From the NCBI RefSeq assembly GCF_949628265.1, contig NC_088787.1:5012501-5076500 (forward strand): DNA of 64,000 bases, read 5' to 3'. This DNA is from Cloeon dipterum (Eukaryota > Arthropoda > Insecta > Ephemeroptera > Baetidae). A program made the translations under genes and the position numbers. Each line of letters opens with the position of its first letter. The first letter of the stretch is position 1. A model generated the notes under the pieces. That model searched no databases, was not told where the DNA came from, and saw only the letters and a list, made by a program, of their open reading frames with translations. Of the stretch, positions 1,809 through 22,788 are shown piece after piece.

Positions 1809-1881
1809 GAAGTGACTATATATACGTTCTTTGGTAAAGCCCTGAAATCGTGGACAATATATATTTTCTTATGATACATTT

Positions 1882-2503: not shown

Positions 2504-4324
2504 ATGGAGTACATTGATAGTGAGATTTGCGGTAGGTTCTACATGGCCAACGAGCTCCAACACCAACACCAAATGTTGCCCTCGCCAGAACCAACGAGGT
2601 ATGATTATATATAGTAAAATAAAATCAGAGGAATTAATTCGTCAAAATGTTTTAGGTGCTCCAACTCTGACCAGACGCAGAAGCATTATAGCTTCAGTAA
2701 ATTTAAAAAAAAGATGACCCGTATATCGAAGCTTTATTTCGGTTTAATTTCAGATTTAGGAAAGAAGAGAAATCTTCAATCGGAGAGTTCCTCTTCCTCA
2801 GAAAGTTCGGATAGCCAACTCGTTTTAGAATGTAACGTCTCTGATCATGATTATAGTAAGATGGGCGTACTTTGGAAAAATAAAAAAAATTGAAAATATT
2901 ATATTTTAGCTTCCTCAGTTGAGATTAAACCTGAAGCGATTAATTCCCCTCGTCCAGAAGAATCAGATGACTCTCCTGTAGACCAAAAAATCCCTGACTT
3001 TGATTTTGGTGAGACGGAACCGACAAATTCTTCTTCTCCAGAATGCTGCTTAGATTTAGAGGACCCTGATTCAGAGTTTGAAACCATTGACTCTGATAAT
3101 TGTGGTGAGATGAAACTAAAAAAATTGAAAAGCCCTCCCTCACTCAGCAGTGCCAATGTTAAATTATTTGTTTGATTTTAGATTCACGAGAGGAAAGCCA
3201 AATTGGAACGATAAGTCTCTGCTCTCGTTCAGAAACTTCAGAGTTAGAAATGCTCGACCATGATTTCGGTGAGATATCTGAAAATTTAAAGACGGTCTTT
3301 GACGAAGTTTCTGAGCACACCAATCGATTCCTGAGGGTCGAATTAGGTACAGTAGATATTATTCCAGGCCAAAAAGTGTTGCGCGAGGTGCGAACTTTTC
3401 CCGCCAAAACAATATGAACGTAAATGAGAGAATTGCGCGTGCGCCAGAGCTGGTTTCAGCACTGGCGGAGAGATCCCCTGTACGAATGACTTCTTTGTCA
3501 GACTCAGCCAGCTCTCACGCATGCGCATTTCTCGCAGATAATACGTTCATATTGTTTTGGCGGGAAAAAGATAGAACGTTGCGCTCCACTTTTTGGTTGG
3601 AAAAAATATCCAATTTTCCTATAATTCGGCCTTGCAGAATCGATTGGTATGCTCAGAAACTTGACCATCAAAGGCGGGTCATCTTTAAAAGTTGCAAGCT
3701 AAATTTTATCTGGTTTAATTTTGGATTTTCCAGATCTTGAAACTAGTAATTCCTCTCCTCCGGAAGGTCCCGACAAATCCATTTCCGATCGAAAAACACC
3801 TGACCCTGAATTTGGTGAGGTTATTCTAGCTTTTAATAAAATCAGCTAGGGAAACTAAATTAGATTTTTACCAGACGAAAGCCATCAACTTCTACCGATA
3901 AGTTGCTGTTATCCAGAAAGCTTGGACGACCTCGCTTCAGAGCGTGAATTCTCCGAAACTAATTCTGGTGAATAATAATTATAACTTTTCCTGTTTTTTT
4001 TTTAATTCTTGAATGTCACAGACTATTTAAACACCTGCTCTTATGATCAGATCTCACAATTTGTGGACGAGCAAAGAAGAAAATTTGAAGAGATGGTTGA
4101 TAGAATCGGTATTTTCCAAAAGTACTTTAAGTATAGCTTAAAACTATGCCATGATTTTTTTGTTTTGTATTGCAGAGAAATCTAAACAAGAAAGACGACG
4201 AGAAGTAGTAAAGCGTAAGAGAATCAAATTCGCGTCTTCCTCTGATGGTAACGGAAAGAAATTGATTAGATAAAACAATTTTAAATTAGCAAAATATATT
4301 TCAGGAACTGGCTCTTCCTCCTAA
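2504..4324 (+). CDS. Acidic Ser/Glu/Asp-rich protein built from ten small, mostly symmetric exons
   Basis: I do not recognise the family. Ten exons join in one frame: 2504-2598, 2656-2696, 2754-2855, 2910-3104, 3182-3268, 3734-3814, 3875-3967, 4022-4108, 4176-4247, 4305-4324 (873 nt, 290 aa). All introns after the first are phase 1, so exons 3-9 are 1-1 symmetric cassettes of 72-195 nt. Several cassettes end with Phe-Gly across the splice (hDF|G, EF|G) and have SSxPE or SET clusters rich in Ser, Asp and Glu. Exon 9 is basic (QERRREVVKRKRIKF), which resembles a nuclear localisation signal, and the last exon adds only GTGSSS. Intron 5 holds a palindromic MITE. The AATAAA at 4541 lies beside the opposite-strand poly(A) signal of the Env-like gene (4574). 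A decayed copy of exons 9-10 lies at 13140-13340. The first exon is the least certain. Confidence 0.66.
3286..3689. mobile_element. MITE family A, full palindromic copy in intron 5 of the acidic gene
   Basis: The left arm starts TTTAAAGACGGTCTTTGACG and the right arm is its inverted equivalent. The arms (about 150 bases each) contain GAATCGATT, TAATTCGACC and TTTGGCGGGAAAAA-type blocks. The centre has paired GCGTGCGCCAGAGCTGG / CAGCTCTCACGCATGCG half-palindromes. Related copies: 13018, 31085, 43404, 47514, 52334, 62196, and a diverged subfamily at 7245-8290. No coding capacity. Confidence 0.82.
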
Positions 4325-4947
4325 AAAGCCTTTGCTCGTGCGCGATTCACCATTCAAGACGGAGGTTTAGCTCTTAGACTTTTTAATTGACCTGCAGCTG
4401 CAGCGCTGCGAGAAAGAAAATCAGAATTTAAAGTGTTCCAAAAATATAAATTTTAAAGCGGTATTTTTTGTAATTCAGGAACCTTTTAGTATTTTTTTAA
4501 TTAAGATGGGAATGTGAAAAATAATGTAGATTAGAAAAAAAATAAAAATTAGCAAGTAGATTACGATGATTTTTTTATTAAATTTATAACACACTGTACA
4601 AAAATAAATGTTTTAGACGGTTTGAGCTTTTACACAAAGAGCTCTTAGTGGCAATCTGAGTAACATCAAAGTGGCTACAAAAATTAAAATGTCTGTCTAG
4701 CTCCACAGCTGTCGTATATGAGTCGTAGGTAAAGGTCAATATCGCTCTTTGCCCTGCAGTCTAAGTATAGTACGACCACGAGGAAGCCAGAGACACTTTC
4801 TGCGAAGGACACACGGCCATAGTTGTCTCTATGAGGTACCGGAACAGGTACTAATTGTTCGCCACCTCTAATCCAAACTCTTTAACTTCCACTTGAATCG
4901 TCACTTCAACCTCCTTCTCCTTCTTCATAAAATCGTCTATATCGGCT
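4325..4947. other. Convergent 3' ends and decayed membrane-anchor sequence of Env-like gene 1
   Basis: Plus-strand AATAAA (4541) and minus-strand poly(A) signal (TTTATT at 4574) show that the acidic gene and Env-like gene 1 converge here with touching or overlapping 3' UTRs. On the minus strand, about 4740-4830 aligns with the transmembrane end of Env-like gene 3. Both share a run of Val and Leu followed by LYLDC, then the nucleotides of the CTTTACCTACGACT block. The stop codon of Env-like gene 1 comes before it, so it is now non-coding. Confidence 0.5.
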
Positions 4948-6675
4948 TCAACCGAAAATGTTTACTATGATGTTTACTATGTCGGACGTGATCGGCCTGT
5001 TCCACGCGCCGGGCAACTCTTTGATCCTATCCACCTCCGATCGCAGTTTGTGAATCGTGATCATTTGGAACTCCTTCCTTTCCCTCCAATGCACATTGAA
5101 CAGGGCGTCTACTTTGGGGCGACGCCAGTCGCTCAGTTTTGCCAGCTGCTTTGACACGTACTCGACGGATGGAAAGCTCACCTTAGGTATTTCGATGCTG
5201 TCCAAAATCCCACCAACGGTGTAGGTTCTGGAGGTGCCGATTAGGGTTGATCCGCTGGCTTTTACGGTGCAGCCGTCGGGTACGTGGAGGACGCCGGCGC
5301 CGCTGATCGAGTCAGGGACCTTAATGGTCCAGGCTTCCGTCCGGCAGTTCGTTTCCAGCTTCGTGTCGGATGGCACCGCGTAGATGAAGTCGGAAACAGT
5401 CGTCGGTTGGACGAATCGGGGCGTGAATGTCTTCATGACGACCACGTTGCACAGGTCGTCGATGTCCTTTTCATCGCTTTTGAGCAGCTTCAGCAGGCAG
5501 CTGGGCTCGTCGTCCTCGCGGCGGATCAGATTTTTCGGATAGCACTCCTTGTTGGCCGAATTCTGGCAGATGTTGAACTCGGAGAAACTCATGAAGAAAT
5601 ACCGTTTTCTCTCCTCGTCCACGGCGATCAGGTCTGCTTCCGGATTGATTTGGTAGAAGAGGCCCTTGGCGTCCAGTCTGGCAGGGAACGGCACCGGCTC
5701 AAATACAGTGAAATTCCTCTTCTCGTCCATCACCGGAAAGGACACGTCCAGCACCAGATCACTGCTGTCTGGTCCGCTGAAGACGCTAACCTTAGCGAGG
5801 TTGTAGAAATTATGCAAGGTGGTTCCTTGCCCTGTCTGGTCTTTAGGGAAGAACAGACCGCGTTCGTCGCCAATTTGATTCAGAATCTTCACCAGAATGG
5901 GCGTCGGGAGGAAGAAAGGGTCCAGCTTCCCCAGCGCGGACAACGTGTAGGCCTGCGTGAGGGACGTGATCTGGGCTGCCAGGAAATCGAAGGCATTGCG
6001 GAATGAATTCATGGCCTTCTTGAAAAAAGCCTCAATTTCGTCAAACACATGTCGCGCTTCTCTTGATCGACCAGCTGGGTTGGAGCTATTTTCTTGAAGG
6101 ATTTTAATGTTGTCCATGACGAACTGCAACTGCGAATAAACTTCGGTTTTCAACAGGTACAGTTGTTCGTTTGTACCGTTGTATATTGAGAATTCTTCAC
6201 TCATGAAGTTCAATATTTCTGCTGTCCCATTCGTGGCGCGTGACCGCAGCTTTTGATTTACATCATCCACGTCCGTCCAGTTGAAATGGCGGTTGTCTGC
6301 GTTTTGAGTTATTTGCCGCTTCGTGATTAGGTGCTTGATGTTAGAAAATATGTCTAACATCATGTTTTTCAGCTTAAGCGATACCTCTCTTATTTTGGAG
6401 TTTTTCGGCAGACTAGTCACCCAATCGGCGACCTTTTCCATCCCTGCCCGTCTTATTTTTTGCATAAATGCGTCCATGTCTGATCTGAGGTCATACAAGG
6501 CGGTGCTGAAAATTTTCACGTTCACCGGTATCCGAATTTTCCAAGTGTGGACGGAGGAAAGGACTTCCCCCCTTTCCATGAAGAGCAGGCCTTTTTCCAG
6601 GTCCACGTATTCACCGTTGGTTTTCTTAAGGTTGTTGAAGATCAACAACGCAGCGCACAACCAAATCAACCTCAT
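4948..6675 (-). CDS. Env/F-like glycoprotein 1 (errantivirus Env / baculovirus F type), anchor lost
   Basis: One uninterrupted 575-residue reading frame. It begins with a signal peptide (LIWLCAALLIF core). The body resembles the Baculo_F/insect errantivirus Env family: the GLLFMERGEV start, a dibasic KR near residue 120 where family members are cut, coiled helical segments, and a Cys-rich C-terminal half with spaced motifs such as SFSEFNICQ, EPSCLLKLL, DDLCNVV and DGCTV. Several NxT/S sites suit a secreted glycoprotein. The segment after KR is polar rather than a hydrophobic fusion peptide, and the protein stops before any membrane span, so it should be secreted and not fusogenic. No gag, pol or LTR is beside it, which points to host capture. 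It is spliced from a 5' UTR exon at 9311-9396 (acceptor at 6684). Its nearest relative is copy 2 at 13683. Confidence 0.68.
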   Translation of the reverse strand: MRLIWLCAALLIFNNLKKTNGEYVDLEKGLLFMERGEVLSSVHTWKIRIPVNVKIFSTALYDLRSDMDAFMQKIRRAGMEKVADWVTSLPKNSKIREVSLKLKNMMLDIFSNIKHLITKRQITQNADNRHFNWTDVDDVNQKLRSRATNGTAEILNFMSEEFSIYNGTNEQLYLLKTEVYSQLQFVMDNIKILQENSSNPAGRSREARHVFDEIEAFFKKAMNSFRNAFDFLAAQITSLTQAYTLSALGKLDPFFLPTPILVKILNQIGDERGLFFPKDQTGQGTTLHNFYNLAKVSVFSGPDSSDLVLDVSFPVMDEKRNFTVFEPVPFPARLDAKGLFYQINPEADLIAVDEERKRYFFMSFSEFNICQNSANKECYPKNLIRREDDEPSCLLKLLKSDEKDIDDLCNVVVMKTFTPRFVQPTTVSDFIYAVPSDTKLETNCRTEAWTIKVPDSISGAGVLHVPDGCTVKASGSTLIGTSRTYTVGGILDSIEIPKVSFPSVEYVSKQLAKLSDWRRPKVDALFNVHWRERKEFQMITIHKLRSEVDRIKELPGAWNRPITSDIVNIIVNIFG

Positions 6676-7244
6676 TTTGACAATCTGTGAACATTTTTAA
6701 TTTGAAATTATTGTTTTTGAAGATATAATTATAATCAAAACAAAATAATAAGCATCTTTTGAACAATTGATCAGATTTAGATTCCTGATATTGAGAGTCA
6801 CGCGCCTGCTCTTGGCCAATGAGAAAATATTTTGGTTTATTGAAACCTGTCCAGTAATTTTCCGGTTAAAATATTTCTGGATCCACGTGAAAAACCGGAA
6901 AAAGATCGGATTCCGGTTCCCTGTCTAGAGATACGATCTTTATGGCTGATTTAGAAAGTTCAAATAAGATAAATTAATTCGTGAAACCTAATCACCCTCT
7001 TAAAAAATAATTTTGGGAATAAATTGGTAGAAAAATTCAATTCAGAAACGTGATTTATTTGAGTGACTCGAGCCGCGCCGCGATTCGCGCCGTGAGCCAG
7101 CAGCCGCCTAATTTAGGCGAGAGCATACACACACTCTCCCGAAAATCCTCTCTTGTCTGCTGGCGAGCGAGGAGAGCAAAAAATAATAATGTGCACAGTG
7201 CACACCTCTCTCCATCTGTATCGGCAGGCAGGCCGCCCCGCCAG

Positions 7245-8290
7245 ATCTGACGCACAAAGGTTCAGATTATTTGGCGGTAAAAAAGGTTCCACGTGTGCTA
7301 CGCACGTCACGCTGGCCTTTTTGGTCGGAAAAAATATCAAATTTACCTAATTCGATCCTCATGCAACAATCGATTCGCGTGATCAAAATTTTCGTCAAAA
7401 TGGGCCTTCAGCACTCAAACTGACTTTTGACACGAAATGCGCTCTTTTTGGCGGCTTTCGGAAAAATGTAAAAAAACCGAAATTAATTTGGTTAATTTTC
7501 CCGCTGGTATTATACGCAAAAACAGTGGTTAATTTTTGCACATTGCAAAATTGGGGAATCCTGGTTAGCTATAAGTTGCGTTTTATATTCTATAAAATGG
7601 ACGACGAAGTAAAGTTAATCAAGTTTTTTGTATTACATTTGTGTTTTTCCTTTCAAATGGCCATAATTAACGTTTATATTTTAGGAAAAAAGAAGAACAG
7701 AAATTTTCAGATAATAGAAGTGAATTAGGTGGGAAAAATTGGTTTTCATATTGGAAAAAACACGCTGCGAACAGGGTTTGCCAATTTCACAATGGTGAAC
7801 CCCTGGTGGTATGTTGCCAGATTATATTTTTTTTTATTAATAGGCTCACTTTGACGAAAATGTTGATCACACGAATCGATTGTTGAGGTTCAATTAGGTA
7901 AATTTGATTTTTTTTTACCAAAAAGTCCAGCGTGACGTGCGTAGCACACGTGGAACCTTTTTACCGCCAAATAATCTGAGAACCTTTGAGCGTCAGATCT
8001 GGTGGGGCGGGAGGCCAGCCGATACAGATGGAGAGAGATGTGCACTGTGCACATCATTATTTTTCTCTCCTCGCTCGCCAGCTGACAAGATGCGACGCAT
8101 TTTATTTCCCCCCTCTATCTGTGCCTGCTGGCCTCCTGCCCCGCCAGATCTGACGCACAAAGGTTCAGATTATTTGGCGGTAAAAAATGTTCCACGTGTG
8201 CTACGCTTGTCACGCTTGACTTTATAGTCGAAAGAAAGCAAATTTACCTATTTCGACCCTAAAGAACAACCTTCTGCCGAACGGAAACCA
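7245..8290. mobile_element. Diverged MITE A subfamily (one arm plus one palindromic copy)
   Basis: A forward arm at 7245-7400 and a complete palindrome at about 7845-8290 share CAGATCTGACGCACAAAGG, TTATTTGGCGGTAAAAA, CCACGTGTGCTACGC and CAATCGATTCG blocks. The internal order matches MITE A (GGCGGGAAAAA, CACGTCACGCTG, TTTACCTAATTCGACC, AATCGATT). The arms flank a centre with GTGCACTGTGCAC. No coding capacity. Confidence 0.72.
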
Positions 8291-9310
8291 AAGTGATTTC
8301 AAGGAATTTTAAAAAGAACAGTATTTCAGGAAATATTGAACCTCTCTTTCAAGCAATTATGTACAAACTGCGATATAATTTTGTCTGGATATGGCAATGT
8401 ATGGGGCAAAATCACCCTGCAGAACCATATTAAAGGTTACTTTGAAAATAAAAAATTTATTCGTGTCTCGTGTCCGCAAAGTTTTCGTTAAAGTGGGCCT
8501 TTAAAATTTAATTGCTTATTAATTCCTAAAATTTAAATTAAATTATGGCCATTTGAAGGAAAAAACAAATGAAATAAACAAAAAAACTTAATTAACTTTA
8601 CTTTGTCGTCAATTTTATAGCATAAAATGCAACTTGTAGATTACCAGGGACCAGGTTTCCCCAATTTTGCAATGTGCAAAAATTAACCTTTGTTTTTTGC
8701 GTATAATGCCAGAGTAAAAATAATTATTTTTGCATTTTTCTGAAAAATAAAATCAAAACAGCCATAATTTTTGTCAAAGTTAAAATATTTTGGAAAATTA
8801 CGATGACTGTCCGGTCTTTTGGAGAAACCTACTGATTTTTTTTAAAAATCCCTATTAATTGGTCAACCAGCATCACGAGAATTTTTAACTTCTCTAAAAA
8901 TACACATGATTCAGAAAAAAGTCGCAAAATTTAATAAAAAAACACCAGTAAATATTTTTTGCGGATTATTTTTCCGGAAAAATGCGGGTTTATTGCGATC
9001 TCTGCAGTTAGCAGCGTGGTATACGCCTAAGTTTTGAGTTTTTGCAGTCTTAAAAAGCACATGAGCCGGCTGGAAGGCAGCCGCCAGCCGGTGAAATTTT
9101 GCCATCCAGCCGCCGATGTCTGTAAAGCCAGCCGCTGATCTAATTTTTGGTCTTTCGTGTGAATTTAAAATAAATTATTTTTAATGGAAATTAACTCAAT
9201 TGAATTAACCGGAATATACAGACAGGAACGGAATATTAAATGAATTCAACTTTAAAAATGTGATTTTAAGAAGGGAAATCAAATAAGATGAGTGAAATAT
9301 TGTTTCTAAC

Positions 9311-9430
9311 CTCTGATGCTGTGTAAAAATCGTGAAGTTCAGTCTGCGGACGTCTCTCACGCAACACCCTTGCAAGTTGTTAACGTTTTTGAGAATGAAC
9401 TCTAGAGTGATCCGATTGAGGGTTTTACAG
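9311..9430 (-). promoter_or_regulatory. Putative core promoter and non-coding first exon of Env-like gene 1
   Basis: Read on the minus strand: a TATA-like TGTAAAA (9428-9422), an initiator-like TTCATTC about 32 bases downstream (A at 9396), then an ATG-free exon ending AGAG|GTTAG at 9311. The acceptor would be 6684, giving a 2.6 kb 5' UTR intron. The block is duplicated at 15798-15916 before Env-like gene 2, where the TATA box is perfect. Joining the exon to the coding exon is inference from position and splice signals. Confidence 0.5.
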
Positions 9431-10510
9431 GCAGCGGCCAGATGGATCTTCCCCCGACGGATCACGTGGCCGAGCAGGGTATACGACACGTATGCGTGGG
9501 AAAAATAATTTTACACATAACACCTTTACAATGGACAAAAAAATCCCATTCAAAATAAATAAACTGCTTTAGAATTGGAAATTGTTTTGCCACCCAGAAA
9601 GATCGCCAATACAATGCTTTTTATTCTGATACAAAGAGCTTAGAGGAATTTGGAGGGCAAGCACGTTTCGCGCCCCGGGGGATATTCACTGTGCAGGTGA
9701 CAAAGCAGCGGGTGAATCGCCTGTTTGGAAAACAACATTCCTGAGAAGTATTCGTGCGTGAACAAATATATTCCGCCACTTTTTTACAATCCTTACGAAG
9801 TGAATTCCATTCCAGGTGTCGAGGTCGTCGAGGATAAAAAAATGCTTTATACTTTGGGACTTTCTTTTATTACCCAAAGTGTATTACTCGTGCAATGAAG
9901 AATATTTTGGTTGGGATTCACAGCAGCCATATAGTATTTCATCCCAGAAATACTCAAATTTCTCCCACTTAAAAGGCTGAGCCGCCCAATTTTTGTCGGC
10001 TGCTCGCTAAACCGGCTTAGCCACCTAAAATCTCGCGGCTGCTCGCCTGATATAGGCGATTTAATTACTGGCTCGCGGCGCCGGCGCGGCACGAGTCACG
10101 AATTACGTTTCCGATTTGAATTTTCTGAACAATTATTTTCATTTTTTCCCAAAATTATTTTTAAGATATGGTAAAAATTAGGTTTCACAAATTAATTTAT
10201 TTATATTTTTCCTTTCAGTCAAAAAGACTCTCAAGACAGGAAACTGGAATCCAGTCCTTTTCCGGATTTTATACGGAACCAGAAATATTTTAACTGGAGA
10301 AGATTTCAATAAACCAAAAAATTCGGTTTTTTATTTTAATTAAAATTAATAAGAAAAAATTATCGCCACAGCTAAATAAGCAGGCTGAAAATTTTAGAGT
10401 TATTTGATTTTTAGTTTTAAAGAAATTCCTAAAAAAATTGCATTTATCGATTTTTTTTGTTATTTGTATTTCTAATCTACCCAACCTGTGGTTCTAATTA
10501 ATAGAATTGC
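9431..10510. other. Non-coding sequence duplicated at 15920-16280, then inverted-repeat arm
   Basis: Bases 9431-9967 match 15920-16279 in the same orientation with several small indels (shared block AATGAAGAATATTTTGG), marking the far end of the tandem duplication that copied Env-like gene 1. Then comes the right arm of the long inverted repeat (10000-10318). GGCTGC/GCCGGC-rich patches sit at 9960-10090. No gene seen. Confidence 0.5.
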
Positions 10511-11770
10511 AAAAATCACCAACCATTAGACTCGTCTTGACCTCTTCAGAGCAGCTGAATGATTTAGGAGGTGCATGCTCTCTCATCCCCTGCCATTCCC
10601 AACCGTCAATTATTATTTATAATAAGCGACGACCGTTTCCTGTGCAACTTTTAAGCCGTATGTAAACTTTGGGGTTGAAATCAAACAGCCCTAAACCCTT
10701 CAGCTGCTCAGAGGAGGTCAAGACGAGTCCAACAGTGGGTAGTTTTTGTAATTGCGATGCTTAGAACCCGAGATTTAGAGCTGCAAAGAAACCAAAAAAT
10801 CGAAAAAATATTTAGGAATTGTTTAAATTTTGCTATTTTTGCAACTCCAAATCTCGGGTTCTAACCATTAGAATTGCAAAAAATACCCATCATTAGACTC
10901 TTCTCGACCGCCACTAAGCAGCTAATGTTTTTAGGGGGTGCTTACCCCCATCCTCTTTCAACCCCATTGCTATAATTTTGATAATAATTTTTTTTCGTGC
11001 TTCCCCTGTGGGCTTAAAAATATTTTATCCTAAGCTCCTCTATATTAAAGTGGAATGATACTGGGCAACAATTGAAAATTATTTAATTTGTTGGATGCCT
11101 TAAACAATTGACCGATTAACAAGCTGTTCAACAATTTGCAATAGTAAAAAAGGGCCTTCCTACAGTAAAAATTCAAATTTTGCCAATTTTCTCCAAATTT
11201 TGCAGTGCTTAAACATATTTTCTTGTCATATTCCGATTCCTCTCGACGAGATCTGTCCAACGGTGTATACCACTTATTGGGGAAACTCTTGGTTTTGAAA
11301 TTAAATCGGATTTCAAGTAAGGAGACAGCCATTACCATTTGAAAAGCACGCTAACTTTCCAGCCAATTTTCTCGAAAAATTACAGCGCTTCTTAGGTCAA
11401 TTTACGCTTTAACTGAATCCTAAGGGACGAGTTTATGCATTGGCAACCAGCATTTTCCAGGCTTTTCCAGTATCATTCCTCTTTAACACTATGCCTCGTC
11501 CCAAAAAAAACAATTTTTTTTTAATTAAATGCAAATTAATATTATAAAGTCCACACAGGTACAAAATGTTTTACTTTTTCAAGAGAGTTTTGGTATGGGG
11601 TGGAGGGTAAGCACCCCAAAACCCTTAAGCTGGTTAGGGGAGGTTGAGACGAGTTCAAAGTTGGGTATTTTATTTTGCAATGCTAATGGTTAGAACCCGA
11701 GATTTCGAGTTGCTAAAATAACGAAATGTAAAAAAACACCTAATTTTTCGACTTAAGGAGCGTGGTTTTT
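10511..11770. repeat. Cluster of inverted, hairpin-forming repeats with CGTCTTGACCTC cores
   Basis: Blocks such as GACTCGTCTTGACCTC, AACCCGAGATTT and GGGGGTGCTTACCC recur in both orientations at about 10520-10640, 10690-10790, 10850-10960 and 11580-11710, so the stretch folds into several long hairpins. The order suggests two or three related palindromic elements, some broken. No convincing coding region was found in 10.5-11.8 kb. Confidence 0.6.
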
Positions 11771-13017
11771 TTCTTGAACAAATCCATCTTTATGAAATTT
11801 TCTGCAAAGTAATCGTTACATGAAAACCTTCACAGCGGAATTTTTGCAATTGTACTCGCAGTATTTAAAATAGTACCCGGCTGGCTGGCTGGCGGATAAA
11901 ACTGGCGGATGCGGCTGGCTCAGAATTTGAGCGGCGCGGCTTGGCTCGGCTCGCTCAGGTCTCTAGTACTGGGAAAAGAAATTTAGAAGGTGCTCTGAAT
12001 TGATTAAATTTTGATGACGCTGCGAATTTATAAAAATCAGGAGAGGTTCGAATTTATTCGACACTTTAGTGAAAATATGCGGCAGAGTACAAAAGAGCCG
12101 CAATGTATGAGAGTGTTATTGTTGAGAAAAAAAGAAGTCGTGTGAGAAGGCCACATATATATAGAGAAGGAATAAGCCGGCGAAGCGAAAGGCTGATTGT
12201 GAGTAAGCGAAGAATGCAGCGCTGTTTGCCTATTGTGAAACAACAATGCCTCTTTGTGTCTTTGTGCGAGCAAGCAGCGCACACCCAGGTAGCTGCTTGA
12301 ACTATACCTGAGGGTATTTCCAAGCCAGGGTTGCATTTGCTTACCAGCCGGTTTTTTTCACCAATTGTTTTTAACGGCTTTTACCATTTAATTTTCACCA
12401 ATTTCTTGCGCAAGAAATGCAAGCAAGGAATTTATTCCATTTTTCTTCTGTGAAAATCCAAAATTTGCGGCCAGAGCCGTGATAATTTCCTCCGCTCTGC
12501 AGATATTTTATTAAAAATTGCTGCCAAAATTTTTCCATAAATTTATCTATCACAATTTTTCAAGGCGAGATCATGAGCTGAGGGTTGGAAAATTATTTAA
12601 AAATAAGGTGAAAATAAAGAAACTTGTAACAATGAAAAAAAAACACATTTTACCACTTTGCACTGCATTTTTTAAAAATGCGGTTTTTTTGCAACCGTGA
12701 TCAACGCGAAATTACTGACGGCCCACGCAGAGCACAAACCAATTCTTTCAATCAAAGAACTCGGTGCGAAGAGGGTAAAATATGGCAAAGATATTGGCTC
12801 CTCTACGGCCACTCGGGCCAAATTTTATCCGCTCGGCGGTGTTTTTGGAACCCACTCAGCTCATAGACCACAATATGTGCTTAGCAGAGGTTGAAAAATC
12901 TGCTAAAATAATCTGCTCTCAATCAGTTACAAAATACTCGGGAGATTTTCAGCACGGCTGATATTTGGCGACAGGTTTAATAATTTTTGCTCTGATTCCG
13001 AATTCAATGCTGCTTGT
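11771..13017. other. Gene-poor stretch with GGCTGGC-rich patch
   Basis: No supported gene. At 11875-11965 there is a local GGCTGGC/GCGGC-rich patch like the one at 9060-9135. A short part of 12695-12760 (ATTACTGACGGCCCACGCAG) resembles 17995-18035, so a small fragment is duplicated. Short open stretches near 12103-12300 lack codon bias and splice context. Confidence 0.35.
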
Positions 13018-13140
13018 TGCTTAAAGACCATCTCTGACGAAGCTTCTGAGAACACCAATCGATTCTTGAGGGTTGAATTAGGTAAAGTGGATATTTTTCC
13101 CGCCATAACAATAAGAACTGTGCATGCGTCAGAGCTGTGT
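13018..13140. mobile_element. MITE family A, half copy at a duplication/deletion junction
   Basis: One arm only, with CGAAGCTTCTGAGAACACC, AATCGATTCTTGAGGG and GTGCATGCGTCAGAGCTG blocks. It runs directly into sequence equal to intron 8 of the acidic gene (CATGATTTTTTTGTTTTG). In the parent locus these two are about 0.7 kb apart, so copy 2 lost what lies between. Confidence 0.7.
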
Positions 13141-13340
13141 CATGATTTTTTTGTTTTGTTTTGTAGAGAAATCTAACAAAGGACGATCGCCGAGAAGTAG
13201 GAAAGCCCAAGAGACTCAAATTCGCGTCACCCTCTGATGCGGTAACAAGAGAGAAAGTGATTATATATATTAAACTCTATTTTAAAATAGCAAATTGATT
13301 TTCAGAAGCTGGGCCCTTCTGCAATTAATTAATAAAGCCC
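13141..13340 (+). pseudogene. Decayed copy of exons 9-10 of the acidic gene
   Basis: After an acceptor like that at 4175 comes sequence clearly related to exon 9 (AGAAATCTAA, then CAAATTCGCGTC) and, after a short intron-like stretch, a relic of exon 10. Indels put the reading out of frame and the donor (GATGCGGTAAC) is altered. All earlier exons are missing. It sits downstream of Env-like gene 2, exactly as the intact gene sits downstream of Env-like gene 1, so it is the remnant of a tandem duplication of both genes. Confidence 0.7.
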
Positions 13341-13682
13341 TTGATCGTTCGCAATATACCATTCAAGAAGAGGTTTAGCTCTTAGACATTTTAATTTATC
13401 TGCAGCTGCGCGGCGCGGCGAGAAAGAAAATCAGAATTTAAATATAATTTTTAAAGCGATATTTTTTGTGATTCAGGAACCACTATTTTTTTAAAAAAAA
13501 AAATAGAGAATTTCCATTTTAAAAGTGAAAAATAATATATGTTAGAAATAAACATTAGCAATCAGATTACGATGATTTTTTTTATTAAATTTAAAACACG
13601 ACTATATACAAAATTTTATTACAAAAATGTTCTAGATGGTTTGAGCTTAGACACAAAACACTTCACTTTGGCCATCTCCATC

Positions 13683-15137
13683 TTAGCATCGTTTATCGGA
13701 TTCAACAAGTTGGCCAAACCGTTCTCTCAGTCCGATTTTTCCGAAATCTGGTTCATTATCGGTTTTGATGTTGATGCCATCGAGGAGATATCCGGCAACG
13801 CTCACGGTGCAGCTGGAGGGCACGTAAAGGGTGCCGGTTCCGCTGATCGAGTCAGGCATCTCCATAACCATGGCTCCCCACCCGCACTTCTTGTCCAGCT
13901 TCGTGTCGGACGGCACCGCGTAGATGTAGTCGGAAAAAGGCGTCGGTTTGATGAATCGGGGCTTGAATGTCTTTATGATGGCCACATCACACAGGCCTTC
14001 TGCGTCCGTGACAGCGGTTTTGAGCAGCCGCATCAGGCAGCTGGGCTCTTCGTCCTCGCGGCGGATCGGTCTTTGCGGATAACACACCTTGCTGGTCGAA
14101 TTCTGGCAGGTGCAGAACTCTGAGAAGCTCATGAGGAAATACCGTTTTCTCTCCTGGTCCACGGCGATCAGGTCTGCTTCCGGGTTGATTTGGAAGAAGA
14201 GGCCCTTGGCGACCAGTCTGGCAGGCAACGGCACCGGCTCAAATACGGTGAATCTACTCCTTTTGTCCAGCACCGGAAAGGACACGTCCAGCACCAGTTC
14301 ACTGCTGTCTGCTCCGCTCAAGACCCTCACCTTAGCAAGGTTGTAGAAATTACGCAAGGTGGTTCGCTGCCCCATCTCATCAGGGAAGAGCAGACCGCGT
14401 TCAGCGTCGATTTGATTCAGAATCTTCACCAGAATGGACGGTGGGAGGAAGAAAGGGTCCAGCTTTCCCTTCTTGGCCAACTTGTAGGCCTGCTTCAGGG
14501 ACGTGACCTCGGCTCCCAGGAAATCGAAGGCCCCTTTGAAAGCCTCCATTTCGTCTGACACTTGTCGCACTTGTCTTGAACGTCCAGCTGGGTTGGGGCT
14601 ATTTTCTTGAGGAATTTTGATGTTGTCCATGACCTGCTGCAACTGTGAATAAACTTCGGTTTTCAACAGGCTCAGATGATTGTTCGTTGCGTTGTATATG
14701 GTGACTTCTTCACTCATGATGTTCAATATTTCTGCAGTGGTGTTGAAATGGAAGTGGTGTGTGTTTTGAGTTACGTGCCGCTTCGTGATTAGGTGCTTGA
14801 TGGCTGAGAATATGTCGCCTATCCTGTGTGTCAGCTGATAAGATGCAAATCTCATTTCCGAGAACACCGGTGATTTAACCATCCAATCTGCGGTTGCTTC
14901 CATTCCTGACCGTTCTAAGTTTTGTACATATCCGTCCAGGTTCGATTTTAGATCAGCCAAGGCGGTGGTGAAAATTTTCGTGTTCATCGGGATTTGGATT
15001 CTCCAAGTTGTGGCTGTGGCAAGGACTTCACCCCTTTCCTTGAAGATAAGGCCTTTGCCCAGGTCCAGGTCGTCACCATTGGTTTTGTGAAGGTTGTTGA
15101 GGATCAACAACGCAGCGCACAACCAAATCCACCTCAT
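13683..15137 (-). CDS. Env/F-like glycoprotein 2, shortened secreted form
   Basis: One open frame of 484 residues, closest to Env-like gene 1. It has the signal peptide (IWLCAALLIL), GLIFKERGEV start, dibasic KR near 120, the conserved SFSEFCTCQ, EPSCLMRLL, GLCDVA and SSCTV cysteine motifs, and several NxT/S sites. The region after KR is shorter than in copy 1, so the fusion-peptide zone is deleted. The C-terminus ends about 90 residues earlier, in an unrelated tail (FGQLVESDKRC), with no membrane span. I infer a secreted ectodomain that could bind a receptor or other Env chains but cannot fuse membranes. An acceptor at 15146 and a TATA promoter and UTR exon at 15798-15916 support expression. 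The poly(A) signal is at about 13581. No gag or pol nearby. Confidence 0.66.
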   Translation of the reverse strand: MRWIWLCAALLILNNLHKTNGDDLDLGKGLIFKERGEVLATATTWRIQIPMNTKIFTTALADLKSNLDGYVQNLERSGMEATADWMVKSPVFSEMRFASYQLTHRIGDIFSAIKHLITKRHVTQNTHHFHFNTTAEILNIMSEEVTIYNATNNHLSLLKTEVYSQLQQVMDNIKIPQENSPNPAGRSRQVRQVSDEMEAFKGAFDFLGAEVTSLKQAYKLAKKGKLDPFFLPPSILVKILNQIDAERGLLFPDEMGQRTTLRNFYNLAKVRVLSGADSSELVLDVSFPVLDKRSRFTVFEPVPLPARLVAKGLFFQINPEADLIAVDQERKRYFLMSFSEFCTCQNSTSKVCYPQRPIRREDEEPSCLMRLLKTAVTDAEGLCDVAIIKTFKPRFIKPTPFSDYIYAVPSDTKLDKKCGWGAMVMEMPDSISGTGTLYVPSSCTVSVAGYLLDGINIKTDNEPDFGKIGLRERFGQLVESDKRC

Positions 15138-15146
15138 TTTGTCAAT

Positions 15147-15797
15147 CTGTGAACATTTTTAATGTGAAATTATTGTTATTGTAGACATAATTTTATTAAA
15201 ACAAAATAATAAGCATCTTTTGAACAATTGGTCAGACTTATAGAGTCCTTATATTGAGAGTCACGCGCCTTTTCGGACAGACGCGCGTTCGCCCTGCGCA
15301 GATCCACGTTCCTATCTTTTACTATATTAAAAAAGCTTTCGTTAGCGGCTTTGTTTCGGAATATATATTAAGTAATTAGTCCCCAAAGTTGGAAATGGAA
15401 TAAGATTTCGAATTTACGTTAAAAGAATGACTTCTCAGATCATAAGTTGAATTTAATAATTATTAACAATCAATTTATTAATTTAGAAAATGAAATTTTA
15501 AAACAGACAAAAATATGAATTTTAGATGATCTGAGCGGCTTATGGTTGCGTAATTTCTTTAATTATCATTGTAAAAAAATAAAAAAGGCTGATTTGTGAG
15601 CTTAATTAGCCACATTATTTCGTACACTGGAACAAAAGTTATATTACGTATATTTAACATAAATCATTTTCACCGTGAAATTAACTCAAATTATAACCGG
15701 AGTACAGAGAGGAACGGAATATTAAATGAATTTGACTTTCAAAAATGTGAATTTAAGAAGGGAGATAAAATAAGATAAGTGAAATATTGTTTCTAAC
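15147..15797 (-). other. Putative 5' UTR intron of Env-like gene 2
   Basis: 651 bases between donor GAG|GTTAGAAAC (15797) and acceptor TTCACAG (15147). Parts near the acceptor match the sequence before Env-like gene 3 (18530-18615), showing common ancestry of all three 5' flanks. It lacks the MITE nest that fills the matching intron of gene 1. No coding sequence seen. Confidence 0.45.
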
Positions 15798-15916
15798 CTC
15801 TGATGCTCTGCCAAAATCGTGAAGTTCAGTCTGCGTACGTCTGCCACACCACACTTGCCAAGTTAAGTTAATGCGTTGAGAGTGAACTCACGAGTAGTCT
15901 GACTGAGGGTTATATA
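15798..15916 (-). promoter_or_regulatory. TATA promoter and non-coding first exon of Env-like gene 2
   Basis: On the minus strand there is a perfect TATATAA (15916-15910), then a TTCACTC initiator with A at 15883, 33 bases downstream, which is textbook arthropod spacing. An 86-base ATG-free exon follows and ends AGAG|GTTAG at 15798. The same exon length and donor occur at 9311-9396. It is a cellular-type promoter; no LTR structure is visible around it. Confidence 0.6.
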
Positions 15917-17238
15917 GTGGCGACTGGAGCGTCGTCCGATGGATCACGTAATATGCGTTGGAGAAATAGTTTCACAACACTTTCACAATGGATAACAAAT
16001 ATCATTTCAAAATAAACTCCTTTAAAATGGGAATATTGCTCTTGCAATGCAATTTATTCTTACACAAAAATAAGCATTGAGGAATTTCGAAGGTATTTGG
16101 GTGAACAAATTTATTTCACCATACTTTTGCAATCCTTACGAAATCCAGGTTGTCGAGGATGAAATGCTTTAGTTTGGGACTTTTTTACCCAAAGTGCATT
16201 ACTTGTGCAATGAAGAATATTTTGGGATTCACAGCAGCCATTATTAGATCCCAGAAATGCTCACATATCTCCCACGGCTTTGACACTCCCTGAGAGAATG
16301 CCTTAACAATGGGAGCCAACGGTCTGGTTTATATTATTAACAAAAGATTGTTTCTGCTGCGAGAGACGTAAAAATGAAAAAAAATCTGAAGACCAAAAGC
16401 AAAAGATGATAAAACTGAAAATATAGAACTACCTGGCATCCCGCGTGTCTTTCGGCTGAAAATGCTTTTTGAAATTGGTTTGTGCTGCGTTAATAATATC
16501 CGTTCTTTTGTGCCAATATTGTATGAGTATTTATGCTCTCTTCTGTAGACAGGTACAAAAAAACTAATAATTTTTATCGTTAATGTAAACATTTATTGAA
16601 CACATGTTTCTGGATATTTTTTAATTGAGTGGTTGAGTTCATTGCACAATATCTTGTATTTTAGATTGATAAAGGTAGAAATAACAGACTACCATTAAAA
16701 ATTGAAAGTTGAGGAATGCCGAAAACAATAATAAAGCAAATGTTTTAAAAACTCTCTCTAGGACCTAGGCCGATTCACTACTTCCTGGTTTGCAATTTCC
16801 AGAGCAAGCGTGATTTGACTTAACAGGACGAATGTCCAGCGATTCAATGCAGTGCTCGGTGCGGGGACAAGTGGCCCTTCATAGTGGGCCGGGTCCTTGT
16901 GCGGCCTGGTGCGCTAATAATACCCGTTCGCGGTGTTATTCGCACTCGGAATTCAGCATTCATGCCAGTGCAGTGCGCGCCCTTCCCAGTCCTCGAACAG
17001 GGATAAAAAGAGCAAAAAAACGAAGAGCTATAATTTAATTTCAGTTTTGAGAGCAAATTCTCCTGTCAATTAAACCATGCAAACGTTAATATTAATTTCC
17101 TCCAGCTATGTTGCGGCCCTCAAAGGTTAATAAAAACCTGTGAATCGGCTGGAGCTATGCATTGTTGAGGCAGCATTTAAGCGAACTAACAATTACTAGA
17201 AAATTCGATTCAATTCACCAGTGGCATAAATCCTATAA
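15917..17238. other. Duplicated non-coding blocks between Env-like genes 2 and 3
   Basis: To 16280 this repeats 9431-9967. From about 16580 to 17200 it resembles 22390-22790 in the same direction (blocks GAACACATGTTTCT, GGTTAATAAAAACCTGT, ATGCATTGTTGA), the flank of the CaaX gene. Between them lies a GC-richer patch (16830-17000) with short inverted repeats. No gene supported. Confidence 0.45.
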
Positions 17239-17555
17239 GTGTTCGAAGCCGCTAACAGATGGCGCCACCGTATGCTTTGGTAATAAATTTAATTTTAAGT
17301 CCCTTCTGCTGCGATTTCAGACTTAATTCTGCTAATCAGTTTAGCCAATCGCCGTAAAATCGTTGGAAAAGATTAAAAAAACAGCTTTTCACGATTCTAC
17401 GGTGATTGCTGATCCGATTTTGGTTTTCAGCACGTCAAAAGAATGCATATTAAGTAAGAAATCCACAGTAGCTATAGATTGAGTCTGAAATTGCAACGTA
17501 AGTGTCTTAAAACTAAATTTTTAATGTGGCGTTATCTGTTGGCGGCTTCGAACAC
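17239..17555. mobile_element. MITE family B, palindromic, with CTCF-like motifs at both ends
   Basis: Starts GTGTTCGAAGCCGC and ends with the inverted GGCTTCGAACAC. The arms contain AACAGATGGCGCCACC, GATTTCAGACT and an AATCGCCG type block before a short loop. Related copies are at 39198-39584, 39600-39862, 53524-53907 and 59542-59905. No coding capacity. The outer motif fits the CTCF core CCASYAGRKGGCRS at almost every position. Confidence 0.8.
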
Positions 17556-18625
17556 TAAGGGCTTAAACAATTGATAATAGACATGTCATTATATAAACAT
17601 CACTATTTTTCCCAGAAGGGTTTACATAACGATAACAATTATTGTTATTGTACCTGTAAAAAGAAGCAAAATACTCGCACTATATTAACTGCCGTTGTCG
17701 TGCTCGGCGCTCCATGGCGCACGCGCCTGATTTCGCTAACTTTCCCCGACGCTATACCATTATTCTAGTTGATGCCAAAGAAAGCTCACAAGGTGCTGGA
17801 TTAGGGGTAAGAACACAAATTAGTTCTGTAGCTAATAATTATTATTGTGATAAATACATGTCTTAAAACTTTTGTGATTGCGATGACAATGCTCATTACA
17901 AAGTTTTCATGTTCTTTTATTGTAATACGAGAGGCATGTTCTTCAACCAATTCTTACGAATTCCCTTTTTTTCAGTTACCAACGCGCCAATACTGACGAC
18001 ACACGCAGCACAAACCAATTCGCAGTGCGCTTTTTCAGACAAAAGACGTGATACCAGGTAGTTATATTTTTTAGTTTTATCGCTTGCTTTTTAATTCATT
18101 AACTTTGTCTTCAGAAAATATATTTTTGTAATTTTTACGCCTCTCTCTCACACACACACCAGAAAAATAATTCTTTTGTTTTAAATATAAACCAGCCCGT
18201 TGGCTCGCGTTTTTAAGGCATTCTCAGGAGTGTAGAAGTGCAGTGGGAGATATTTGATCATTTCTGGTATCTAATATGGCTACCCAATGTCAGAGATGGC
18301 AAAAAGTGGTTAGTTTAGTGACTCGAAAAGCTCAAATTGCTCAACGGGCTGGGAGGAATCACCGCTCTTGCTAGTTTACGAAAACCTTTCCAGCAGCTTT
18401 TTGGCGTCAATTAAATTAATTTAACTATTGCAAAATTAGATTGTGATTTTGATAATTCCCCGAAAAATCATAGGAATCATAATGGCACTAATGTTTCATG
18501 AATTAATTTCCTCAATGTTGACTAGAAGAGAGAGTCTGACCAAATCAAATAGATGATTCTTTGTTTTGATAAAATTAGGTCTACACAAACAATAATTCCG
18601 AAACATAATTTCAGATTGCTATGAA
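17556..18625. other. 5' region of Env-like gene 3
   Basis: No gene seen. 17995-18035 resembles 12705-12750. The last 90 bases (from about 18530) match the 5' intron end of Env-like genes 1 and 2, with acceptor TAATTTCAG just before the start codon, so gene 3 probably also has an untranslated upstream exon that I could not place. A (CA) run lies at 18150-18160. Confidence 0.35.
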
Positions 18626-20416
18626 ATGAGGTGGTTCTGGCTGTGTACCTTATTGGCCCTCAACCTCCACAAAACCAATGCAAATAAATCTCTGGACAAA
18701 GGCCTCTTCTTCATGGAAAGGGGTGAAATCCTTGCCACAGCCGACACTTGGCGGGTTCAAATACCGGTGAACCTGACAGTTTTCACCAGCGCCTTGGCTG
18801 AATTCGAAGAGAACCTGGACATGTATCAACATAACGTAAAACCACTAGGAAAGGAAAAAGTCGCGCAATGGATTGATCTGGAATACTCCGCAATGAAAAA
18901 AGGGTCGGCTCAGCTGAACAAGATGATAGACGACATTTACTCAACCATCACGCACCACCGAATCAAGAAGCGACACATCTTTAAATACGGAGTCTACTTC
19001 CCCTTCAAATGGCTGTACGGCGTGGCTGCATCTTTGGACGTGGAGGAAATGAATCGAGTACTGCGGACAGAAGTCTCGGATAAGATTACGGAAATGGTAA
19101 ACGTCATGAATGAGGAAGTGTCCATGATCAACGCAACGAATATACATATGAACGAGTTGAAAAGGGAAGTAAATTCGAAGATACAGGTGGTCAAGCCGCT
19201 CATGAAGAACATTGAAATTCTTCAGGGAAAACACCACAACCTAACCGATCGTTTCGGTCAAGTGGTTGACCAAATGCTGGCTGCCGACAACGCCATAATG
19301 GCTATGAATGCGTTCCGCAATGCCTACGATTTCCTAAAAACCCAGATCACGTCCCTGAAGCAGGCCCACATGTCCTCCATGCAGGGAAAGCTGGACCCGT
19401 TCTTCTTCCCGCCGACCTATCTGTTGGAGATGGTGGATAAAATTCATGCTGAACGCGATCTGCTCTTCCTCGAAGGAGAGCAGGAGGATTCCACCTCGCT
19501 TGGGTTCTACAGCATGGCTGAGGTTAGCGTCTTCAGCGGAGCAGACAGCAGCGACCTGCTGCTGCACGTGACCTTTCCGGTGACGGACAGGAAGAGGTTG
19601 TTCACCGTATTTGAGCCGAGGCCGTTGCCTGCTGAACTGGGCGACAAAGGATTCTTCTTCCAAATCAATCCGGAAGCAGACCTGATCGCCGTGGACAAGG
19701 AGAGGAAAAGGTATATCCCCATGAGCTTCTCCGAGTTCAGCATCTGCCAGGGTTCGGCCGTCAAGGTGTGCTACCCGCTAGAACTGGCCCGCCGCGAGGT
19801 CGACGAGCCCAGCTGCCTGCTGAAGCTGCTCAAAAGCGATGAAAAGGACATCGACGACCTGTGCAATGTGGTCGCAATGGAGACGTTCAAGCCCCGATTC
19901 ATCAAACCGACGCCTTTTTCCGACTTCATCTTCGCGGTGCCGTCCGACACGAAGCTGGACAAGAAGTGCCGGACGGAAGCCCTGGCCAGGGAGATCCCTG
20001 ACTCGATCAGCGGCGCCGGCGCCCTCCACGTGCCCACCGGCTGCACCGTGAACGCCAACGGATCCATCCTCTTCGGCAGCACGTCCACAATCATCACCGT
20101 CGATCTGGTTTTCGACCAAATCCAAATTCCTGAGGTGGTCTTTCCGTCCGTCAATTACGTGAAAATTCAGCTGGAAAACCTGAGCAAGTGGGGTCGCTTC
20201 AACTTGGAAGCCCTCTTCAAAGTGGATTTGAAGAAAAGGAAGGAGTTCCAAATAACGATTCAGAAAATGCGATCGGAGCTGGACAGGATCAAAAATTTGG
20301 CCAACGCTTGGTACCCGATCCAGTACGTCATCGACAACTGGCCGTACGTCACAGTGTGTGCGGCTTCCACGATCGGCATCATAGTCATTCTCTACTTGGA
20401 TTGCTGGGCAGCATAG
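18626..20416 (+). CDS. Env/F-like glycoprotein 3, full length with membrane anchor
   Basis: One open frame of 596 residues. Signal peptide (FWLCTLLAL) at 1-19; a basic cluster RIKKR at 112-116 (not a strict RxxR furin site), followed by an aromatic, partly hydrophobic stretch with the order of an insect Env fusion peptide (FPFKWLYGVAAS); helical segments; the Cys-rich half with SFSEFSICQ, EPSCLLKLL, DDLCNVV and TGCTV; and a membrane span near 574-591 (ASTIGIIVILYL) with a minimal cytoplasmic tail. It is the most complete of the three and may resemble the ancestor. An intact frame without gag, pol or LTRs suggests selection after capture, but a lone recent insertion cannot be excluded. AATAAA at 20686. 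Orientation is opposite to copies 1 and 2. Confidence 0.7.
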   Translation: MRWFWLCTLLALNLHKTNANKSLDKGLFFMERGEILATADTWRVQIPVNLTVFTSALAEFEENLDMYQHNVKPLGKEKVAQWIDLEYSAMKKGSAQLNKMIDDIYSTITHHRIKKRHIFKYGVYFPFKWLYGVAASLDVEEMNRVLRTEVSDKITEMVNVMNEEVSMINATNIHMNELKREVNSKIQVVKPLMKNIEILQGKHHNLTDRFGQVVDQMLAADNAIMAMNAFRNAYDFLKTQITSLKQAHMSSMQGKLDPFFFPPTYLLEMVDKIHAERDLLFLEGEQEDSTSLGFYSMAEVSVFSGADSSDLLLHVTFPVTDRKRLFTVFEPRPLPAELGDKGFFFQINPEADLIAVDKERKRYIPMSFSEFSICQGSAVKVCYPLELARREVDEPSCLLKLLKSDEKDIDDLCNVVAMETFKPRFIKPTPFSDFIFAVPSDTKLDKKCRTEALAREIPDSISGAGALHVPTGCTVNANGSILFGSTSTIITVDLVFDQIQIPEVVFPSVNYVKIQLENLSKWGRFNLEALFKVDLKKRKEFQITIQKMRSELDRIKNLANAWYPIQYVIDNWPYVTVCAASTIGIIVILYLDCWAA

Positions 20417-21111
20417 AGAAGTACCTCAAAATATATGAGATTGACCTGCTTTACCTACGACTAAACAGAGAAGTAATTCCAGGGAATTGTCACTGCTTGA
20501 TTTTCCAGGCCAAATTTAGACAATGTTATACTCAAATTGCTACTTTGAGTCAAAGCTCGAACCATCTAGAACTTATTTGATTTGAATTTTAAATTGAATA
20601 GAAATAGATAAATTTTTCTCGATCCTTCCTGTGTATATTTAATCTATAATAATTTTGTAATTTAAAATTGCATGGAATGTATTTTAATAAAAAAATATAG
20701 AAGTTACATCAGAATAAATTAATCATTTCTTTTCATTCAATTAGAGAATGGATTTTCCAAGAAATCCAGAAATTTTTCTCCGGAAGTTCCTGAGATTTTT
20801 AAAGGAACAAGAAGGAATTTCTCGAGGAAGGTTCCATTTATATAGTTAATATATAAAAAATTAACACAGGTAGAATGGTCTGTTTGTTATTGAACTGGTT
20901 GGAGTACAAACTTTTGCAGGCGTTTATGAAATTCGATGTTATTGTTTTTAGGAATTCTAAAAGAAAAACAATGAATTGGAAAAATAACATATTATTTGTT
21001 TTTATCATTTCAATCCAATTTAGAAAAATACAATTAATTTTATCATACATCACTATTAACTGCAAGAAAAAATTGTCCACGATTTCAGGTCACTTCCAAA
21101 GAATATTCACA
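20417..21111. other. 3' flank of Env-like gene 3 and arm of the inverted duplication
   Basis: To about 20700 this is the 3' UTR of Env-like gene 3. From 20735 it is the inverted counterpart of 1810-2460, without the 282-base MITE found there. No coding sequence supported. Confidence 0.5.
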
Positions 21112-22260: not shown

Positions 22261-22788
22261 GACGATTGAAGACTTTCGTAATGCTACAATCAAGTCCACA
22301 CTGATAAACCTTCCTTATAGCTGAACCGCTATTACACGAGGGTAAAAAAACGCCGAGTTCTTTGAAAATATTATGTTTACACTTTAAAGCAATATTGAAC
22401 ACATGTTTCTTAATATTTCATTCATTACTCAACGGTTGAGTTTATGGCGCAATAACATATGTATTTTTACTGACAAAATTAGTAATAACAAGAACCACGC
22501 GTTTTAATTGAAAGCTGAGGAATTCCAAAAACAATAACAAAGAAATTGTTTTTGATTACGAAACGCTTTAATTTATTTTCAGTTCTGCAAGTCAATTGTT
22601 TCGAAATATCTAATCTTTGGGAAATTCTCCACTCAATTTCACCGCACGTACATATGCGGTCCTGAAAGGTTAATAAAAACCTGTTACTTTTGGCTTGAGC
22701 AATGCATCGTTGAAGCCGCGCATTATTGAGAAATAAATTTTTGGTGAAATTTGATTGCAAAAGGTTTTTTTAAAAGTCTATCGTTATA
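22261..22788. other. Intergenic sequence with block shared with 16580-17200
   Basis: Bases to about 22340 belong to the DM9-like inverted duplication. 22390-22790 repeats the block also found near Env-like gene 3. It precedes the acidic CaaX gene and may include its promoter; no TATA box at a clear distance was identified. Confidence 0.4.

What the first reader, a model, noticed from the sequence alone, without database searches (positions are those of the whole stretch)
4948..20416. Three intact Env/F-like genes without gag, pol or LTR
Seen: three long single-exon frames (575, 484, 596 aa) with signal peptides, shared Cys motifs (SFSEF-C, EPSCL, LC) and F-protein-like layout, and no retroviral neighbours. 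Known: insect Env and baculovirus F genes have been captured by hosts, as in the Iris gene of flies. Inference: a captured envelope gene that multiplied here and may serve in antiviral defence or in cell contact.
Basis: partly seen in the sequence, partly recalled or inferred. Interest (0 to 1): 0.8.

Follow-up and report, generated by a model that had tools for sequence, protein, structure and literature searches.

The report
Captured viral envelope genes in mayfly
A mayfly genome carries three intact genes descended from a viral cell-entry protein; two of them lack the parts needed to fuse membranes and look like secreted proteins, which could act as decoys against viruses.

Summary
Observation confirmed. 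Genes A (4948-6675 -, 575 aa), B (13683-15137 -, 484 aa) and C (18626-20416 +, 596 aa) score far above the Baculo_F cut-off; C's model resembles baculovirus and RSV F. No gag, RT or integrase domain was found in 125 flanking ORFs. The host is a mayfly, Cloeon; its C. dipterum proteins include an apparent orthologue of each gene. The copies share flanking DNA, so they arose by segmental duplication.

New point: the fusion machinery is largely gone. None has R-X-X-R at the usual cleavage position; A and B, and their orthologues, have lost most of the fusion-peptide segment and any membrane anchor; only C keeps an anchor. The frames are open where neutral drift would leave 7-8 stops each, but paralogue dN/dS is 0.82-0.84, not distinguishable from 1. 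Best reading: captured F-type Env genes turned into fusion-impaired, mostly secreted proteins, plausibly entry-blocking decoys. Function is untested. The own-genome search did not complete (10 calls), so family size and gag/pol elsewhere in the genome remain unknown.

The parts
4948..6675 (-). Gene A: F-type Env-derived ORF, 575 aa, most of the fusion-peptide segment gone, no C-terminal anchor
   Evidence: P0002 of C. dipterum 75.6 % identical, tree
4750..4827 (-). Decayed relic of the membrane-anchor coding stretch, 3' of gene A's stop and not part of its protein
   Evidence: tblastn of gene C's tail against 1 kb, E 0.001, without composition correction; alignment. No such relic found 3' of B
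13683..15137 (-). Gene B: F-type Env-derived ORF, 484 aa, fusion-peptide segment gone, C-terminal part replaced, no anchor
   Evidence: P0003 66.9 % identical, tree
18626..20416 (+). Gene C: F-type Env-derived ORF, 596 aa, anchor at residues 575-593, basic site without R at P4, altered fusion-peptide segment
   Evidence: P0001 87.7 % identical
6676..6807 (-). 5' flank of A, shared with B (91.6 % over 131 aligned bp), with acceptor-like CAG|ATTG just before the ATG
   Evidence: splice use is inferred
15138..15270 (-). 5' flank of B, shared with A; same acceptor-like site
18533..18625 (+). 5' flank of C, 70-72 % identical to those of A and B over 94 aligned bp; acceptor-like site kept
4144..4638 (.). 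3' flank of A shared with 13135-13657 (3' flank of B)
   Evidence: 74.9 % identity
9163..9968 (.). Upstream flank of A shared in the same order with 15652-16275 upstream of B
   Evidence: 73-75 % identity in two pieces
18003..18281 (.). Upstream of C, inverted match to 16236-16490 upstream of B
   Evidence: 71.5 % identity
20741..21035 (.). Downstream of C, inverted match to 2167-2445 on A's 3' side
   Evidence: 72.5 % identity
517..1858 (+). DM9-repeat gene copy 1, inverted repeat of copy 2
   Evidence: 87 % DNA identity; DM9 E 1.7e-7
21072..22379 (-). DM9-repeat gene copy 2
   Evidence: DM9 E 6.2e-10

Best explanation
The three are host genes that descend from one captured F-type (class I) viral envelope gene in a mayfly lineage. 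Supported by calls: homology, C's fold, lack of retroviral neighbours in the scanned 26 kb, spread by DNA-level segmental duplication (one tandem, one inverted), and apparent 1:1 orthologues in a second Cloeon genome. Seen in the sequence: no R-X-X-R at the usual cleavage position in any copy; most of the fusion-peptide segment and any anchor lost in A and B and in their orthologues. Inferred: C is an anchored, fusion-impaired Env; A and B are secreted, still bind the receptor that the ancestral virus used, and so block entry of related F-bearing viruses or endogenous retroviruses, as soluble truncated Envs do in mammals.
Against: Paralogue dN/dS is 0.82-0.84 by ML and 0.87-0.98 by NG86, not distinguishable from 1; none of 16 whole or regional ML fits reaches significance. 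A, B and C do have R-X-X-R elsewhere (A 205, B 188, C 144); the one in A and B also occurs in P0002 and P0003, so cleavage at another place is not excluded. In the tree of residues 1-300 B and P0003 do not pair (open fork), and P0002-P0003 identity in residues 61-120 (78 %) exceeds that of the orthologue pairs A-P0002 and B-P0003 (63 and 61 %), which points to local conversion. B's tail differs from that of P0003. P0001 as annotated lacks the leader. Fold evidence rests on a model of pLDDT 58.7 with TM-scores of 0.2-0.5, and VIA's note warns that such Z can be ordinary for long helical models. A's model is poor (pLDDT 49.4). No viral relative in two viral-contig scans. No expression, secretion or binding data.
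Confidence: 0.5

Rival explanations
1. Captured Env genes kept for a host cell-surface or reproductive role: C is the working, anchored protein and A and B are modulators that bind the same partner or co-oligomerise with C (a syncytin/suppressyn-like pair).
For: C is the only anchored copy and the most conserved one (87.7 % to its orthologue; shortest branches).
Against: C lacks R at P4 of the basic site and its fusion-peptide segment is altered, so fusion is doubtful. No expression data.
Confidence: 0.2
2. Slowly decaying relics: A and B are pseudogenes on the way out, open by chance or recently released from constraint.
For: dN/dS not different from 1; anchor relic beyond A's stop; B truncated, with a tail that differs from its orthologue.
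Against: 7-8 stops expected per gene under neutrality, 0 of 400 simulated runs open for each; CDS gaps mostly in frame; gene models of similar length in the second genome; six core cysteines invariant in all ten aligned proteins.
Confidence: 0.15
3. Env of a degenerate endogenous retrovirus or other virus whose gag/pol parts lie beyond what was scanned, with the family still mobile elsewhere in the genome.
For: More distant Cloeon members P0005 and P0006 have RKKR at the cleavage position and a fusion-peptide-like segment, P0006 also a hydrophobic C-terminal stretch; their neighbourhoods were not seen. One direct repeat pair around C plus DM9 is unexplained.
Against: No gag or pol domain in 125 ORFs around A, B and C; copies share longer flanks in collinear order; apparent 1:1 orthologues.
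Confidence: 0.08

Closest known systems
Iris of Drosophila (Malik and Henikoff 2005; paper not held; seen only as a cited reference in PMC4276936 and PMC5408687)
   Same: An insect host gene derived from an envelope gene, by the title of that reference; F-type and without gag/pol is recalled.
   Different: Here three tandem/inverted copies in a mayfly, two of them anchorless. Orthology to Iris was not tested.
Baculovirus F protein and the F-type Env of insect endogenous retroviruses (PMC12992720, passages)
   Same: Pfam Baculo_F, class I F-like fold for C, conserved C-terminal cysteines.
   Different: That paper's passages name furin site, fusion peptide and transmembrane domain as conserved in such Envs; here the furin site is missing at the usual position in all three, the fusion-peptide segment is mostly gone in A and B and altered in C, the anchor is gone in A and B, and no viral neighbours were found.
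Soluble truncated Env restriction factors of mammals: FeLIX, Refrex-1, suppressyn (PMC11019853, abstract and passages)
   Same: Env-derived and without a membrane anchor.
   Different: Those are mammalian retroviral Envs, unrelated by sequence as far as I recall; here only the architecture is alike and no inhibition is shown.

Membership tests
Baculo_F (PF12259) protein family | Score above Pfam's gathering cut-off | tested here: met
   81.3, 81.1 and 70.9 bits against 24.1
Class I F-type fusion glycoprotein | Class I F fold | tested here: met
Class I F-type fusion glycoprotein | Furin site R-X-X-R at the F2/F1 junction | tested here: not met
   A, B and C have KR without R at P4 at that position; P0005-P0007 have R-X-X-R there. 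R-X-X-R occurs elsewhere in A, B and C
Class I F-type fusion glycoprotein | Fusion peptide | tested here: not met
   A and B: segment mostly replaced or deleted. C: present but altered, inconclusive
Class I F-type fusion glycoprotein | C-terminal membrane anchor | tested here: not met
   A and B: none by hydropathy. C: met, residues 575-593
Insect endogenous retrovirus (errantivirus) | gag and pol next to env, LTRs | tested here: not met
   0 of 125 flanking ORFs with a gag/pol domain; of three direct pairs bracketing an env gene two are collinear duplication flanks and one is unexplained
Domesticated env gene (Iris-like) | Orthologues at the same locus in related genomes | tested here: inconclusive
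Domesticated env gene (Iris-like) | Selection on the protein (dN/dS different from 1) | tested here: inconclusive
   0.82-0.84, 2dlnL 1.14-1.85 against 1
Soluble Env restriction factor | Secreted, no anchor | tested here: inconclusive
   No anchor in A and B by hydropathy; leader seen by eye only; secretion not tested
Soluble Env restriction factor | Receptor binding and block of entry | not testable with these tools
   needs binding and entry assays

The most novel reading that the evidence does not exclude
Mayflies run a fast-evolving family of fusion-dead, secreted F-type Env decoys, multiplied by segmental duplication inside a cluster of DM9 (pattern-recognition-like) genes: an invertebrate counterpart of receptor-interference immunity by soluble Env, with the losses of cleavage site, fusion peptide and anchor still readable in the paralogues.
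Probability: 0.3. Interest if true: 0.75.

Novelty: new variant of a known kind. Interest (0 to 1): 0.55.

Why it matters
As far as I recall, captured envelope genes in insects are known mainly from one fly gene; a 2014 review says that the cellular roles of the Drosophila env- and gag-derived proteins remain to be demonstrated (PMC4276936, passage). A mayfly cluster in which one copy keeps the anchor and two are anchorless, with apparent orthologues in a second genome, makes the decoy hypothesis directly testable in an early-branching winged insect, and shows how a fusogen loses its fusion parts while its frame stays open.

Tried and rejected
Gene conversion among the paralogues: over all sites, 5 site-pair patterns fit within-genome sharing in both genomes against 232 that fit orthology, so it is not a major force; but that count misses conversion in one genome only, and P0002-P0003 look converted around residues 61-120 (78 % identical, orthologue pairs A-P0002 and B-P0003 63 and 61 %). 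A single co-duplication of the DM9 genes with A and C: the DM9 pair (coding DNA 93 %, non-coding flank 88 %) is much younger or homogenised compared with A-C (75 % in the CDS), so one event is not assumed. The DM9 pair's omega of 1.99 is not significant (2dlnL 1.76). Retroposition was set aside because flanks are shared; against this, blastn of the same-strand upstream regions of A and C gave no match and their immediate 3' flanks do not align, so for C the shared flank is short. Two viral-contig scans and a tblastn of the phage collection gave no relative. The three protein searches returned only proteins named Cloeon dipterum; two scored only the about 8000 candidates that share most words. 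Gene A's model was not searched because of its low confidence. P0005 was left out of the tree because its model is fused to a trypsin domain.

Literature: eight searches bore on Env in insects, soluble Env or the mayfly genome and one on DM9. One search was flooded by vertebrate papers (20 of 22,537 listed). In the listings and the passages read I saw no description of mayfly env genes; the Cloeon genome paper has no 'baculo', 'envelope' or 'virus' in its main text (PMC7250882, term search). Most subscription papers and preprints are not in the library.
Full report
What is there. The window holds three long ATG frames at the stated places: A 4948-6675 (-), B 13683-15137 (-), C 18626-20416 (+). 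They align over most of their length and each scores 71 to 81 bits against Pfam Baculo_F, whose cut-off is 24.1. Of the about 8000 candidates scored in a search of C against a 5.8-billion collection, 4 passed, all named Cloeon dipterum, a mayfly: P0001 is 87.7 % identical to C, P0002 75.6 % to A, P0003 66.9 % to B; P0004 is more distant. A further search brought P0005-P0007. The window is therefore from Cloeon or a close relative; its exact species is inferred, not shown.

No viral context seen. All 125 stop-to-stop ORFs of 55 aa or more that end by base 26000 and do not overlap the env genes were scanned against Pfam; 2 of 125 matched, both DM9. Shorter or strongly broken remnants would be missed, and the rest of the window was scanned only in part. 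Self-comparison shows collinear flanks: 4144-6807 with 13135-15270, 3286-3365 with 13021-13100, 9163-9968 with 15652-16275, so A and B are a tandem duplication of several kilobases. C is inverted relative to both: its gene and about 94 bp of 5' flank match A and B at 70-72 %, 18003-18281 matches 16236-16490 near B, and 20741-21035 matches 2167-2445 on A's side. The same-strand upstream regions of A and C gave no blastn match beyond that. One direct pair, 16594-16746 and 22393-22552 (74.5 %), brackets C plus the DM9 gene and was not explained. No further env fragment was found in the window by tblastn with six family members at E 1e-3.

Age. The full-length tree of nine proteins is ((C,P0001),((A,P0002),(B,P0003))), each of six inner branches at least 99 by bootstrap and 98 by SH-aLRT. 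With residues 1-300 alone B and P0003 do not pair (5 of 6 branches starred), with residues 301-480 the three pairs stand (3 of 6 starred). P0002 and P0003 are 78 % identical in residues 61-120, above the 63 and 61 % of A-P0002 and B-P0003, so local conversion is likely there. On balance both duplications predate the split from the C. dipterum proteins' source. P0001 as annotated lacks the leader.

Loss of the fusion machinery. P0005 and P0006 have RKKR followed by a hydrophobic fusion-peptide-like segment (by eye), and P0006 has a hydrophobic C-terminal stretch. P0004 keeps the segment and an anchor but has no R at P4. C keeps an anchor (575-593), has no R at P4, and its segment is altered. 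In A and B most of the segment is replaced or deleted, and neither they nor P0002 and P0003 have a hydrophobic stretch that could anchor them. The same scan did not flag the leaders either, so these rest on inspection. R-X-X-R does occur elsewhere: A 205, B 188, C 144; the A/B one also stands in P0002 and P0003, so cleavage at another place is possible. Beyond A's stop, at 4750-4827, a relic of the anchor-coding stretch can be recognised (E 0.001 in a 1-kb search without composition correction). P0002 ends at about the same point as A. B shows no such relic, and its tail differs from that of P0003.

Selection. Pairwise ML omega over the alignable part is 0.84 (A-B), 0.82 (A-C) and 0.83 (B-C), none different from 1 (2dlnL 1.14, 1.85, 1.30); none of the 13 regional fits is either. 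NG86 gives 0.88, 0.98 and 0.87 with intervals that include 1 (which kept B's divergent tail). Yet with 0.15 neutral changes per site each gene should hold 7 to 8 stops, and 0 of 400 simulated copies of each stayed open. Gaps in the CDS are multiples of three in 24 of 30 cases against 10 of 35 in the flanks; the pairs share events, so these are not independent. Between A and B the CDS is 79.1 % identical, less than the 5' flank (91.6 % over 131 bp) and the 3' flank (81.7 % over 520 bp): a kept promoter or leader, conversion, or fast protein change. Together: frames kept, amino acids changing about as fast as silent sites. The anchorless lineages have the longer branches.

Surroundings. DM9-repeat genes flank the cluster on both sides (517-1858 +, 21072-22379 -) and more lie further on; of ten ORFs scanned five matched DM9, three above the cut-off. 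A DM9 protein of oyster is described as a pattern recognition receptor (PMC5712788, title and start of abstract in a listing). The neighbourhood is suggestive, not evidence of function.

How it most likely works. Supported by calls: identity, fold of C, loss of parts, mode of copying, apparent orthologues. Inferred: A and B are secreted and still carry the receptor-facing core, so they can occupy the receptor and block related viruses; C stays on the membrane and may interfere in the producing cell. The pattern is the soluble truncated feline Env FeLIX, which inhibits infection by competing for the receptor (PMC11019853, abstract and passages). I give this reading, mechanism included, 0.5; identity alone is nearly certain.

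Verdict. A real and well-founded observation, a new variant of a known kind (captured insect envelope genes).

Noticed in passing
window 517-1858 and 21072-22379; also 43002-43445, 46487-47125, 51692-52270: A cluster of DM9-repeat genes (two of the five scanned copies fall below Pfam's cut-off); the pair flanking the env genes is inverted and 87 % identical, younger or more homogenised than the env copies.
   Followed up: partly
window 31478-41131: Tandem array of related ORFs that look leucine-rich-repeat-like by eye, without a Pfam match for the two scanned, 31478 and 34412.
   Followed up: no
window 3285-3689, 7880-8266, 10689-10936: Long imperfect palindromes, perhaps foldback or MITE-like elements near and between the env copies.
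   Followed up: no
window 44815-45381 and 48248-48676 (-): Two similar acidic ORFs with a shared C-terminal stretch LAEYLAEGG, a further local duplication.
   Followed up: no
P0005 (C. dipterum) and window 27293-27625: P0005's gene model joins a Baculo_F part to a trypsin domain, and the window has a trypsin-like ORF (20.1 bits, cut-off 20.6) some 7 kb from gene C; possibly an old env-trypsin neighbourhood.
   Followed up: no
window 16594-16746 and 22393-22552: A direct repeat pair, 74.5 % identical, that brackets gene C together with a DM9 gene; origin not explained.
   Followed up: no
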